64,000 bases of DNA from Thermococcus thermotolerans (GTDB lineage: Archaea > Methanobacteriota_B > Thermococci > Thermococcales > Thermococcaceae): the NCBI RefSeq assembly GCF_024707485.1, contig NZ_CP102602.1, positions 124,001 through 188,000 of the forward strand. The letters run 5' to 3'. The translations under genes and the position numbers were made by a program. The notes under the pieces are model-generated. The model made no database searches, was not told where the DNA came from, and saw only the letters and a program-made list of their open reading frames with translations. Numbering within the stretch: the stretch's first letter is position 1; each line of letters starts with the position of its first letter. Positions 41,784 to 46,004 of this stretch are shown in pieces.

Positions 41784-43013
41784 CTATGCCCCTCTTCTGA
41801 ACTTCTCGTAACTTATTCTGAACGCCTCCAGGACAGGGAGCTTTTCCCCCGCAAAGAAGCTCAGCATCGCGCCCCCGCCGGTGGAGACGTGGCTTATGCC
41901 CGTTATGTTGTGCCGGTAGATGCTGGCTATCGAGTGACCACCCCCGACTATACTGAAGGCAGGGCTTTCACCTATCGCACTGAATACTCCGACCGTGCCT
42001 ACCGCAAACTCCTCCCTCTCAAAGACGCCCATCGGCCCGTTGGCGACTATTATCTTCGCCCTCATGAGCACCTCGCGGTACTTTTCAACCGTTCTTGACC
42101 CTATATCGAGTATCGGGTGCTCGTCGAAGAGACTCTTCTCACCGCTCAGCAGGTCAATCTCAACGCGCTCGCCCTTGTAATCTATGGCAAAATCCACTGG
42201 CGTCCTGATGTACGGATAGAACTCGTCCAGTATCCCCTCCGCCCTCTCGACGAGCTCAAGGAGGCCCCGCTTTGCCATGAACTCCAGGTTGGCATCGCCA
42301 AGATGGAAGCCCTTGGCGAGGGTGAAGACGTGGGCAACAAGCCCCCCGGTGAGGATCAGGTCGGCGCGGCGGTTTCTCAGAACGTTCTCAGCAACGCGGA
42401 GTGAATCATCCACCTTTGCCCCACCGAGGACGTAGACCCTAGGCTTCTCCCCGGTCCCGTACGCCCTTGTGAGCGCCTCGACCTCCCGCTCCATTAGAAA
42501 GCCCATTATCATAGGCTTCAGCCTTGCAAAGCCCACCAGGGACGGCTGGCTTCGATGGGCGGCTGCAAAGGCATCGTTCACGACGTAGTCTATGAGCGGT
42601 GCGAGCTTTCTCACGAAAAAAGTCCTCTCACAGTCCTCAATGGGCTTGTATTTGACCTCCTCTGCCGAAAAACGGAGGTTTTCCAACATGAGTGCCTCGC
42701 CGGGTTTTAAAGCCCTGATTCTCTCGCGGGCGTACTTACCAAAGATGTCCTCGACGTATTCAACTTCCTGACCAAGGAGACGGCTCAGGATCCTAGCGTG
42801 TTCCTCGGTGGTGATGTAGTCGCCCTTGTAGGGCTTGCTCTGGTGGGTTCCTATGACGAGTTTGGCCCCGTGTTCAAGGAGGTATATTATCGTCGGGAGA
42901 ACCGCCCTGAATCTGGCGTCGCTTATTATCCTCCCATCCTTAACGGGAGAGTTTAAGTCGGCCCTCAGAAACACAGTCCTGCCGTGATAGCTGAAGTCCG
43001 TGAGCCTGAACAT
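41784..43013 (-). CDS. pgk: phosphoglycerate kinase
   Basis: A 409-residue archaeal-type phosphoglycerate kinase. The N-terminal substrate-binding motif is FLRADLNSPV; 'GTHQSKP', 'LENLRFSAEEVKY' and 'NDAFAAAHRSQPS' follow, then nucleotide-binding 'GGAKVDDSL', 'ANGPMGVFE' and 'STGGGAMLSF'. It interconverts 1,3-bisphosphoglycerate and 3-phosphoglycerate; in Thermococcales it runs mainly in the gluconeogenic direction. A TGM-like box (43061-43077) lies upstream of the minus-strand TATA box at 43045-43052, fitting activation. Confidence 0.95.
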   Translation of the reverse strand: MFRLTDFSYHGRTVFLRADLNSPVKDGRIISDARFRAVLPTIIYLLEHGAKLVIGTHQSKPYKGDYITTEEHARILSRLLGQEVEYVEDIFGKYARERIRALKPGEALMLENLRFSAEEVKYKPIEDCERTFFVRKLAPLIDYVVNDAFAAAHRSQPSLVGFARLKPMIMGFLMEREVEALTRAYGTGEKPRVYVLGGAKVDDSLRVAENVLRNRRADLILTGGLVAHVFTLAKGFHLGDANLEFMAKRGLLELVERAEGILDEFYPYIRTPVDFAIDYKGERVEIDLLSGEKSLFDEHPILDIGSRTVEKYREVLMRAKIIVANGPMGVFEREEFAVGTVGVFSAIGESPAFSIVGGGHSIASIYRHNITGISHVSTGGGAMLSFFAGEKLPVLEAFRISYEKFRRGA

Positions 43014-43060: not shown

Positions 43061-43077
43061 GAACACTTCTAGTGATA
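43061..43077. promoter_or_regulatory. TGM-like motif upstream of pgk
   Basis: On the minus strand TATCAC-TAGAA-GTGTTC, 10 of 12 bases of TATCAC-N5-GTGATA. It lies just upstream of BRE/TATA, the place where Tgr/TrmBL1 activates gluconeogenic genes. Confidence 0.55.
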
Positions 43078-43159: not shown

Positions 43160-45298
43160 ATGCCGTGGACTCAGGATATAATAATGCTCGCGCCAGAGGA
43201 TGTTCTCATCGAAAACGTAATCGAACTGCTGAAGAGGATGGGGTTCAGGGACTATGAAAGGGTTTCCAGCAAGAAGGAGTGGGGAATAGACATCGTGGCC
43301 ATAAGGGACGACCCCATAGCAGGAATGGAGAAGCTGGTGATAGCAGTTCACAGGAAGGGGCTGGCATCTTCACGGGATGTCAACGTTTTTGCCGGGCTTG
43401 TGGACAAGTACAGGGCCGACAAGGGTATACTGATCTCAACCACAGGGTTCACCAAAGATGCCAGGGTTCTCATATCCCGCGAGTACCGGGGCAGGGTAAT
43501 TCCGTGGGACGGGGAGAAGCTGGCCTCGCTGTTCCATAACTACTCCGTTGAGCCTCCCGAGGAACTTGTGAGAATGGCTGAGAACGCCAGAAAAAAGCCC
43601 GAAAAAAAGAGTGCTCTCAACGAGTTTGAGCTCGATGCTCCCCTTCTCCACGACTTCTCTGCCGAGAACGTGTTTAAAAAGGTGGCGTCCTTTGCTTCTT
43701 CCAAGTATCCGGTCAAGCCCTCCGAGATGGGCCTCCTCTCCCTTTCCGTAACCCTGTCCAGTGCGTACATATTCTCCTGGTCCCTTGAGGGGGGCAACCA
43801 GAAGGATAAGGCGGTCGTGTTCTCGGGCGATAAGATTGTCCTTCGTGCAACGGGGGATAAAAAGCTCAGCGTCTCCGTGACCAAGGCGCTTCTCAACGAC
43901 GGCTCAACAATCCATGCCACCGAGAGGTTCATAGAGGTCCCGATAAGCCCGAGCGAGGCTGTTCTCATACTGAAGGAAAGGGCCGCCAAAGAACTGGGGG
44001 TCGTGGAGGGGAAAATAGCAATCCATGAGCGCAAAAAGGTCTACGTTCCGAAGCTTGCAAGGCTCGACCTAAAAGTGGGAGAGAACACTGCAAAAGCGAC
44101 CGTTAATCTGGAGACCGGTGAGGTGCAGTTCGAGATAGAACCATTACCTAATGAATACTTCGTGGAGAGAACCAAGGAGGTGATCCTCAAGCAGACCGGT
44201 GAGGAAGTCCTTGAGAGGGGGCTCAAACGGGAGGGGGACAGGGTTAAAATTTCCGGCAGAACCAGGAGCTTCTATTTTGAGATCTCTTTCAACGCATACA
44301 CAGGAAAGTCCCTCAGCCTCGAAGCCCTTCTGAGTGACGAGGCTCTGGACGAGCTGTTGAGGAAGGTGTACCCAGATGGGAAGGTCATGAACCTTGAGAA
44401 GGGTAGGAAGGTGGCCGTTGCAGACGTCCTCCTCGCTGACGGCATAGCGATTCTTGAGGTAGATTTGACGAACGGCCAGCACAGAGAGATTAGAAAGCTT
44501 CCTTCTCCTGATGAGGCCTTCAAAAACGCCCGGGAGGTTATAGAGGCAAACTTCCCGCTCAGGAATCTTGAGATGAAGTCCCACAGGGTGCTTGAACACA
44601 AATACCTTGAGCTGGCCCTTGAGAGCCCCGACGGAAAGGCAACCGTGAAGGTGGACGGTGCCACGGGGGACGTCCTCGATTATCTCGTGGAGATAACTCC
44701 CGAAAGAGCGAAGGAACTTGTCGCCGAGAGGTATCCAGATTTTGAGATAGTCTCGGTGGGGGGAAACGAGGCGGAGTACACACTGAAGGCTGAGAACGAC
44801 AGGCACGTGGTAACCATAAGGCTGAGCAGGGACGGGAAGCTTGTCGAGGAGGTAGACCGCGTTCTTAAACGGGAGCTGGCGGAAAAGATAGCCCTGGAAC
44901 GCGCCAGAGAGATTGATGAGGAGGCCGGAATAAACTCGATTTCCCTGGATGAAAACTGGAATGTGGAGTTTGCCGGAAAGACCAAAATAGGGACCCTGAT
45001 TCTCCACAGAACCACAGGGGAAGTTCTCAAAGAAAACGTGCGCTTCACGGAGATGGCCATTGAGGCTATGTATCACGAACACCTGAGGAAGACCTTCGGC
45101 GAGGAAGCCCTAACAACGGAGAGGCTCACACACTACAAGGACAGGGGATACATAAACATCAAGGTTTCTGGCAGGGAGAAGTTCTACTATGCGAGGATAG
45201 ACACAAAGACAGGCAAAATACTGAGCGAAGACACCTCACCGATAAAAGGAATAGCGGCAAAGCTAAAGCGGCTCCAGCTTGAGAGCAAATACAAATGA
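43160..45298 (+). CDS. Mrr-like endonuclease domain fused to repeated PepSY-like domains
   Basis: A 712-residue intracellular protein (no signal peptide). Residues ~10-120 look like an Mrr-type restriction endonuclease fold: Asp44 in WGIDIVA, then 'VHRKG' where the usual Q-x-K reads H-x-K (His64, Lys66), and 'GILISTTGFTKDARVLI', the typical Mrr end of the domain. The remaining ~550 residues hold about seven ~70-residue repeats, each ending in a beta hairpin with T/N-G (NLETGEV, NAYTGKS, DLTNGQH, GATGDVL, SRDGKLV, TTGEVL, DTKTGKIL). ATG 43160 follows GGGTGAG. DNA or lesion binding is plausible; the combination is unfamiliar to me. Confidence 0.75.
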   Translation: MPWTQDIIMLAPEDVLIENVIELLKRMGFRDYERVSSKKEWGIDIVAIRDDPIAGMEKLVIAVHRKGLASSRDVNVFAGLVDKYRADKGILISTTGFTKDARVLISREYRGRVIPWDGEKLASLFHNYSVEPPEELVRMAENARKKPEKKSALNEFELDAPLLHDFSAENVFKKVASFASSKYPVKPSEMGLLSLSVTLSSAYIFSWSLEGGNQKDKAVVFSGDKIVLRATGDKKLSVSVTKALLNDGSTIHATERFIEVPISPSEAVLILKERAAKELGVVEGKIAIHERKKVYVPKLARLDLKVGENTAKATVNLETGEVQFEIEPLPNEYFVERTKEVILKQTGEEVLERGLKREGDRVKISGRTRSFYFEISFNAYTGKSLSLEALLSDEALDELLRKVYPDGKVMNLEKGRKVAVADVLLADGIAILEVDLTNGQHREIRKLPSPDEAFKNAREVIEANFPLRNLEMKSHRVLEHKYLELALESPDGKATVKVDGATGDVLDYLVEITPERAKELVAERYPDFEIVSVGGNEAEYTLKAENDRHVVTIRLSRDGKLVEEVDRVLKRELAEKIALERAREIDEEAGINSISLDENWNVEFAGKTKIGTLILHRTTGEVLKENVRFTEMAIEAMYHEHLRKTFGEEALTTERLTHYKDRGYINIKVSGREKFYYARIDTKTGKILSEDTSPIKGIAAKLKRLQLESKYK

Positions 45299-45922
45299 TC
45301 ACGTCATCAGCATGTTCTCTATCATTTTTATTGCTTCCACTATCTTCCTCTCCGGCTTCTCCTCGTTCTTAGGGATCTCCAGGTTTATAACGAGCCTCTC
45401 TTCCTTGCTGTCCTCGAAGTCGTAGACCTCAAGCTCCTCGACCTCAACGTCCTCAAAGATGCTCTCTATCTCGGGGCTGATAATCTTCTTGTCGTTGCCG
45501 TAGACCTCAACGCGCACCACGTCCTCGGTGGTGGAGGCCACCACCACTATCTCATACGCACCGACCTTTTTGGTGAACCTGAGCACGCTTCCGTAGCCCT
45601 CCACATCCTCCTTGAAGCCGAGCTGGTGCATGGTACTCCTTATAGCTTCGGTCTTGCTTTTTATCCTGTTAAGAATCCTCTCGCGGAGCTTGTAGCTCTC
45701 CAAGAGGGCCTTCTTTATCCCCTCCCCTGCCTCTTCAACCGTACCCTCCCATATGCCGATGACCTTTATTCCCGAGGAGGTTGGTTTGAGTTCTATCTTG
45801 ATGGAATCAACGTCGAAGTCTCGCAGATCATCTATTTTAAGCTCGCTGAGGGTGAGGATATCAAACTCCATCCTCACGATGTTACCGAAGGCTTTGCCCT
45901 TGAACTTCACCTTCATCACCAT
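45299..45922 (-). CDS. hypothetical protein (about 207 aa)
   Basis: A soluble, acidic alpha/beta protein, unknown. The frame runs on upstream for ~100 codons, but that part is the antisense of the metallophosphoesterase tail and is Pro-rich, so it is not coding. ATG 45922 lies 24 bases after a TATA box TTTTTAAAC (45941-45950), fitting a leaderless transcript; ATG 45916 and 45958 are options. Sequence pattern: a beta-rich first half then helix 'RILNRIKSKTEAIRSTMHQLGF' and a strand-rich end. It meets the Mrr-like gene's stop with no gap (convergent). Confidence 0.55.
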   Translation of the reverse strand: MVMKVKFKGKAFGNIVRMEFDILTLSELKIDDLRDFDVDSIKIELKPTSSGIKVIGIWEGTVEEAGEGIKKALLESYKLRERILNRIKSKTEAIRSTMHQLGFKEDVEGYGSVLRFTKKVGAYEIVVVASTTEDVVRVEVYGNDKKIISPEIESIFEDVEVEELEVYDFEDSKEERLVINLEIPKNEEKPERKIVEAIKMIENMLMT

Positions 45923-46004
45923 GGAGGGCTTATGGAGATGGTTTAAAAACTCTTCCATGGGAGGTGCCGGGAGAACTGTAAATACAGGAAAAAAGAGGGG
46001 AGGG

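What the first reader, a model, noticed from the sequence alone, without database searches (positions are those of the whole stretch)
43160..45298. Mrr-like nuclease domain fused to about seven beta repeats
The N-terminal ~120 residues have the Mrr pattern with Asp44 and H-x-K instead of Q/E-x-K. The rest is a chain of ~70-residue units with a shared strand-turn-strand end resembling PepSY. PepSY domains normally sit outside the cell; this protein has no signal peptide. The fusion is not a restriction enzyme I know. It could be an intracellular DNA-damage or foreign-DNA sensor.
Basis: partly seen in the sequence, partly recalled or inferred. Interest (0 to 1): 0.6.

Follow-up and report, generated by a model that had tools for sequence, protein, structure and literature searches.

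The report
Pseudo-nuclease fused to PepSY-like repeat array
Heat-loving archaea of the Thermococcus family carry a cell-internal protein made of a restriction-enzyme-like domain, whose cutting residues are not conserved, joined to eight small PepSY-like units; its function is untested, but distant relatives of the array sit beside a phage-defence motor protein in other archaea.

Summary
ORF 43160-45298 (+) encodes 712 residues: an Mrr_cat domain (residues 20-124, E 2.6e-16) and a chain of eight units, each a helix plus about four strands, of PepSY type. The predicted structure confirms a PD-(D/E)XK core and a shared repeat fold. The count is eight units of 56-67 residues (the first is irregular and larger), not seven of 70.

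The family occurs only in Thermococcaceae: 58 intact group-A copies, mostly beside pgk, and 16 copies of a paralogue (group B). It is fast-evolving, repeatedly lost or broken, and absent from phage, plasmid and viral collections.

The nuclease reading weakens. The (Q/E)xK motif is never Q or E first; its lysine is kept in 29 of 58; the paralogue lacks the motif. Conservation sits instead on the beta-hairpin tip (R49, D51-P52, G55, E57). I favour a non-catalytic nucleic-acid- or partner-binding adaptor, not a restriction enzyme.

A new lead: the array module R1-R3 has reciprocal, specific homologues in another archaeal lineage (probably Korarchaeia), always directly downstream of a stand-alone BrxL gene. 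Function is inferred.

The parts
43160..45298 (+). Whole gene, 712 aa (GTG 43151 is an alternative start)
   Evidence: full-length homologues in Thermococcaceae
43160..43549 (+). Residues 1-130: degenerate Mrr-type PD-(D/E)XK domain
   Evidence: Mrr_cat 2.6e-16; model pLDDT 93, pTM 0.87; Foldseek MspJI 1.2e-5, RPB5 2.6e-4, AspBHI 3.8e-4
43289..43291 (+). D44, motif II acid; D in 55/58 and E in 3/58 group A, lost in group B
43349..43357 (+). H64-R65-K66 at the (D/E/Q)xK position; 64 is H 43/K 15, K66 in 29/58, gap in all 16 group B
43304..43333 (+). R49-K58, tip of the beta2-beta3 hairpin; R49, D51, P52, G55, E57, K58 invariant in A; R, P, G, E largely kept in B
   Evidence: strands 45-51 and 55-64
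43550..43630 (+). Linker, residues 131-157, partly disordered
   Evidence: pLDDT < 50 at 145-150; least conserved segment in A
43631..43945 (+). R1, residues 158-262, irregular unit; shared with the BrxL-linked protein of another lineage
43946..44143 (+). R2, residues 263-328
44144..44335 (+). R3, residues 329-392
44336..44503 (+). R4, residues 393-448
   Evidence: R4-R6 hhalign E 1.5e-5
44504..44698 (+). R5, residues 449-513
   Evidence: PepSY match in L035 and L044 here
44699..44869 (+). R6, residues 514-570
44870..45049 (+). R7, residues 571-630
   Evidence: among the units best conserved between A and B
45050..45250 (+). R8, residues 631-697; best PepSY match in this protein
   Evidence: PepSY 666-690
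45251..45295 (+). C-terminal helix 698-712, the most conserved stretch
   Evidence: 3.37 bits/column in A and 42% A-B identity
43099..43106 (+). TATA-like box TTTATAAA, candidate promoter of the gene
   Evidence: Read from sequence; inference
41784..43013 (-). pgk, divergent neighbour
   Evidence: Conserved neighbour in nearly all group A loci
45299..45928 (-). Conserved uncharacterised protein (about 209 aa), converging end to end (0 bp) with the gene
   Evidence: no Pfam family over cut-off

Best explanation
A cytoplasmic, Thermococcaceae-specific accessory protein in which an Mrr-derived PD-(D/E)XK domain has become (or is becoming) a non-catalytic binding module, fused to a rigid array of eight PepSY-like units that serves as a protein-binding arm. 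Most likely action: the N-terminal domain docks on a nucleic acid or a DNA-bound partner through its conserved hairpin tip and a basic groove, and the array recruits or restrains a second protein, making it an adaptor or sensor connected to DNA, plausibly to intruding DNA. Shown: fold, repeats, motif erosion, phylogeny, loss. Inferred: lack of catalysis, DNA binding, partner binding, defence role.
For: PD-(D/E)XK fold by HMM and structure; hits include RPB5, whose nuclease-like domain is non-catalytic (established knowledge). Motif III: position 64 is never D/E/Q, K66 in 29/58, motif deleted in paralogue B, while four other Mrr_cat proteins of the same order, one in this very genome, keep D..QxK. 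The hairpin tip is invariant instead. All 34 scanned members also match Pfam's inactive-REase family NA-iREase1. Units share a fold and profile similarity. The array module R1-R3 is specifically shared with a protein always encoded directly downstream of BrxL, an ATP-dependent DNA-binding AAA+ protein (PMC10164562). Inactive REase domains are proposed as nucleic-acid or nucleotide sensors in other conflict systems (PMC12839542). Fast evolution (median 47% identity against 77% for pgk) and repeated loss or decay fit an accessory function.
Against: D44 (or E) stays in 58/58 group A, and every one has a K or R at 62, 64 or 66, so a rearranged active site is possible. There is no defence-island neighbourhood: the gene sits in old housekeeping synteny by pgk. 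The BrxL link is in another lineage, to an array without the nuclease-like domain. NA-iREase1 also matches an Mrr protein with a canonical QAK motif, so that match alone does not show inactivity. No DNA-binding or partner data exist.
Confidence: 0.45

Rival explanations
1. An active nuclease with a rearranged active site (D44, His64 as metal ligand, Lys66 or a migrated Lys62), with the array as target-binding part: a divergent restriction or repair nuclease.
For: D/E44 in 58/58; K at 62 or 66 in 51/58; K or R at 62/64/66 in 58/58. Lysine migration is documented in the superfamily (PMC1913061). Mrr_cat scores are well over cut-off.
Against: No conserved second acid or Gln; K66 replaced by D, G, E, R or N; position 64 is Lys in 15; paralogue B has lost the motif while keeping the rest.
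Confidence: 0.2
2. A structural or regulatory protein of ordinary metabolism (for instance an intracellular protease-inhibitor-like or assembly factor) with no link to foreign DNA; the nuclease-like domain is only a dimerisation fold.
For: PepSY is known from protease propeptides and YpeB (established knowledge); stable pgk synteny; paralogue B lies next to an alpha/beta hydrolase and purA, not defence genes.
Against: Dispensable and decaying in several genomes; evolves far faster than its neighbours; array homologue tied to BrxL elsewhere.
Confidence: 0.2
3. A type IV (modification-dependent) restriction enzyme, with the array as the reader of modified DNA.
For: Best structural hits of the N-domain are MspJI and AspBHI; PADLOC mREase_IV 3.4e-8 on this domain only.
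Against: No SRA, winged-helix or other known DNA-reading domain found; motif not conserved; PepSY is not known as a DNA reader.
Confidence: 0.07

Closest known systems
Mrr / Mrr_cat (PF04471) type IV restriction endonucleases
   Same: Fold and HMM match over residues 20-124; Asp of motif II
   Different: No Q/E-x-K; no Mrr_N winged helix; domain is at the N-terminus; fused to eight PepSY-like units
Inactive REase domains (NA-iREase1 PF22722; inactive REase of BrxHII and BR helicases, PMC12839542)
   Same: PD-(D/E)XK fold with degenerate motif in a multidomain protein; PF22722 over cut-off
   Different: No NACHT or helicase partner in the same protein; D44 still conserved in group A
PepSY / YpeB / PepSY_like domains (PF03413, PF11396)
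   Same: Helix-plus-strands unit; HMM matches in homologues
   Different: Cytoplasmic, eight in a row, fused to a nuclease-like domain; PepSY is typically extracellular
BrxL-linked 593-630 aa array protein (L170, L175, L176; found here)
   Same: R1-R3 module, reciprocal profile hits
   Different: No nuclease-like domain; two-gene unit with a BrxL of about 490-500 aa without the Lon-like part

Membership tests
Mrr type IV restriction endonuclease | Mrr_cat PD-(D/E)XK fold | tested here: met
Mrr type IV restriction endonuclease | Conserved D ... (Q/E)xK catalytic motif | tested here: not met
   D/E44 kept; position 64 H/K only; K66 29/58; lost in group B
Mrr type IV restriction endonuclease | Separate DNA-recognition domain (Mrr_N winged helix or similar) | tested here: not met
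   No Pfam match other than Mrr_cat, NA-iREase1 and PepSY at E <= 10; the N-domain starts at residue 1
Mrr type IV restriction endonuclease | Cleavage of modified DNA | not testable with these tools
   Needs assay
Inactive REase (iREase) sensor domains | PD-(D/E)XK fold with a degenerate motif across the family | tested here: inconclusive
   Group B fully degenerate; group A keeps D/E44 plus a basic residue; PF22722 also matches a protein with a canonical motif
Inactive REase (iREase) sensor domains | Coupling to an NTPase or other effector | tested here: not met
   No NTPase domain in the protein; no conserved co-directional partner in most group A loci
PepSY domain | HMM match over the family cut-off | tested here: met
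   Over cut-off in L037 24.3, L074 25.7, L063 26.3 bits; below cut-off in the window protein
PepSY domain | One helix plus antiparallel strands per unit | tested here: met
   DSSP of the model
PepSY domain | Exported or extracytoplasmic location | tested here: not met
   The protein begins directly with the Mrr-like fold; no signal peptide or clear TM segment
BREX (BrxL-associated) system | BrxL encoded next to the gene | tested here: not met
   No BrxL beside any Thermococcaceae copy; BrxL in 1 of 94 genomes of the order, elsewhere in this genome; met only for the homologues in lineage f20

The most novel reading that the evidence does not exclude
The R1-R3 array defines an undescribed archaeal module that partners DNA-acting machines against intruding DNA: paired with a stand-alone BrxL lacking its Lon-like end in one lineage (probably Korarchaeia), and fused to a pseudo-nuclease in Thermococcaceae, where the pseudo-nuclease recognises the DNA and the array recruits the effector.
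Probability: 0.22. Interest if true: 0.7.

Novelty: new variant of a known kind. Interest (0 to 1): 0.5.

Why it matters
It is a widespread archaeal protein, annotated at best as a 'restriction endonuclease', that probably is not one. It would be a case of nuclease exaptation together with an intracellular use of PepSY-like units, and the BrxL linkage of its array homologue gives a testable handle on how stand-alone BrxL works in archaea.

Tried and rejected
Foldseek of the full model: top hits are prolyl oligopeptidase-type propellers and viral repeat proteins, with TM-scores of only 0.07-0.16; rejected as matches of repeated strands. PDB sequence search: nothing useful. First genome scan with a single sequence: no hit, a pattern failure; solved with a profile. 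Phage, plasmid and viral collections: none. Defence-island idea: neighbours are pgk, a conserved uncharacterised protein, nth and ABC transporter genes in old synteny. An HD-phosphohydrolase neighbour co-directional with the gene occurs in 7 loci only and was not taken as a functional partner. Literature: no paper found joining Mrr and PepSY in one protein.

Full report
OBSERVATION. The ORF at 43160-45298 (+) gives 712 aa. The window lies in a 2.07 Mb one-contig genome of a Thermococcus-type archaeon: same-genus and same-family relatives in the named collection are Thermococcus and Thermococcaceae MAGs. Residues 20-124 match Mrr_cat at 60.2 bits, cut-off 21. PepSY is weak in this protein but clear in the family: 21/34 members match PepSY and 13/34 PepSY_like, some over cut-off.

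STRUCTURE. AlphaFold2 with 15 sequences gives mean pLDDT 89 (pTM 0.49, so the relative placing of the parts is unsure). Residues 1-130 have the helix-beta-beta-beta-helix-beta order of PD-(D/E)XK; alone they model at pLDDT 93 and pTM 0.87 and match MspJI (1.2e-5), RPB5 (2.6e-4), AspBHI (3.8e-4), AF1548 and EndoMS. Residues 329-697 form six regular helix-plus-four-strand units (R3-R8), preceded by R2 (263-328) and the larger R1 (158-262). Profile comparison of units cut from 58 homologues gives R4-R6 1.5e-5, R2-R4 1.2e-4, R1-R5 3.1e-4 and R3-R7 3.7e-4, whereas the N-domain against any unit is at best 0.016 (single-pair E-values).

FAMILY. 64 of 94 genomes of the order have it, and 65 of 115 of the phylum by profile, all in one family. 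In 396 archaeal genomes of 216 genera no other full-length member exists. There are 58 intact group A copies and 16 intact copies of a paralogue, group B, at 28-34% identity. Group A is nearly always divergent from pgk; its 3' end usually meets a conserved uncharacterised gene with 0 bp between. Broken copies occur in G020, G029, G042, G057 and G081. In nine A-less genomes pgk and the downstream gene lie only 69-341 bp apart, and G060 keeps a relic of residues 602-649 there. The protein is 40-56% identical to the window's where pgk is 74-86%. It is thus old in Thermococcaceae, in place, dispensable and fast-evolving.

ACTIVE SITE. Position 44 is D in 55 and E in 3 of 58. Position 64 (Q/E in Mrr) is H in 43 and K in 15. 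Position 66 is K in only 29. In group B positions 64-67 and 97-101 align to gaps and position 44 is hydrophobic or Thr. Four other Mrr_cat proteins of the same order, one of them in this genome, keep D..QxK. By contrast R49, D51, P52, G55, E57 and K58, at the tip of the beta2-beta3 hairpin, are invariant in A and partly kept in B. A caveat is that all 58 group A proteins have K or R at 62, 64 or 66, so a migrated lysine and a weak or odd activity cannot be excluded.

LINK TO BrxL. The family profile finds one outside protein by its array: a 630-aa ORF in G190, family f20 (E 2.2e-6). Related ORFs occur in G150, G129, G397 and G402. All five lie directly downstream of, and overlap or abut, a BrxL gene (PADLOC 7.8e-98, Pfam BrxL_ATPase 4.8e-106). 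Profile-profile comparison gives E 2.5e-7, score 73 against at most 25 for 40 column-shuffled controls. In the reverse search of 396 genomes the f20 profile finds, outside f20, only Thermococcaceae genomes (21 of them), with the listed hits in the group A gene. No other BREX gene was recognised by eye near two of these loci (not scanned by HMM). BrxL is an ATP-dependent DNA-binding AAA+ protein (PMC10164562); most BrxLs carry a C-terminal Lon-like or nuclease part, while type 4 BrxL lacks it (PMC12839542). The f20 BrxLs are about 470-510 aa and so also lack it.

MECHANISM. Best reading: a binding module derived from an Mrr nuclease, joined to a PepSY-like protein-binding array; a DNA-linked adaptor or sensor. 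Steps shown: domains, fold, motif erosion, phylogeny, loss, array homology to the BrxL partner. Steps inferred: no catalysis, nucleic-acid contact, partner recruitment, defence. Inactive REase domains as sensors are a published proposal in other conflict systems (PMC12839542).

Noticed in passing
L170:2116-5426 (G190), L175, L176, L177, L178: Two-gene unit in family f20 archaea: stand-alone BrxL of about 500 aa overlapping a 593-630 aa array protein that has no Pfam family over cut-off.
   Followed up: partly
window 43061-43077: Palindrome GAACAC-N5-GTGATA in the pgk promoter region, 2 mismatches from TATCAC-N5-GTGATA (Thermococcales glycolytic motif, from memory); chance expectation is about 1 per window.
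   Followed up: partly
G000:C1:1525190-1526527 (L173): BrxL homologue in the window's own genome, the only one among 94 genomes of the order; possibly a BREX locus.
   Followed up: no
L063:5998-8052: Group B paralogue, often overlapping an alpha/beta-hydrolase gene by 4 bp and next to purA; its nuclease-like motif is gone.
   Followed up: partly
L098:1249-2154 (own genome): Weak PepSY match (18.4 bits) in a protein that looks like a zinc ribbon plus two hydrophobic segments: possibly another intracellular PepSY use.
   Followed up: no
L037 (cluster c30, 318 aa): HTH protein whose N-terminal 110 residues look, by eye, like another degenerate PD-(D/E)XK domain.
   Followed up: no
L171:2507-3532: Protein with a canonical Mrr_cat motif plus a possible bacterial PH domain (bPH_1, below cut-off).
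   Followed up: no
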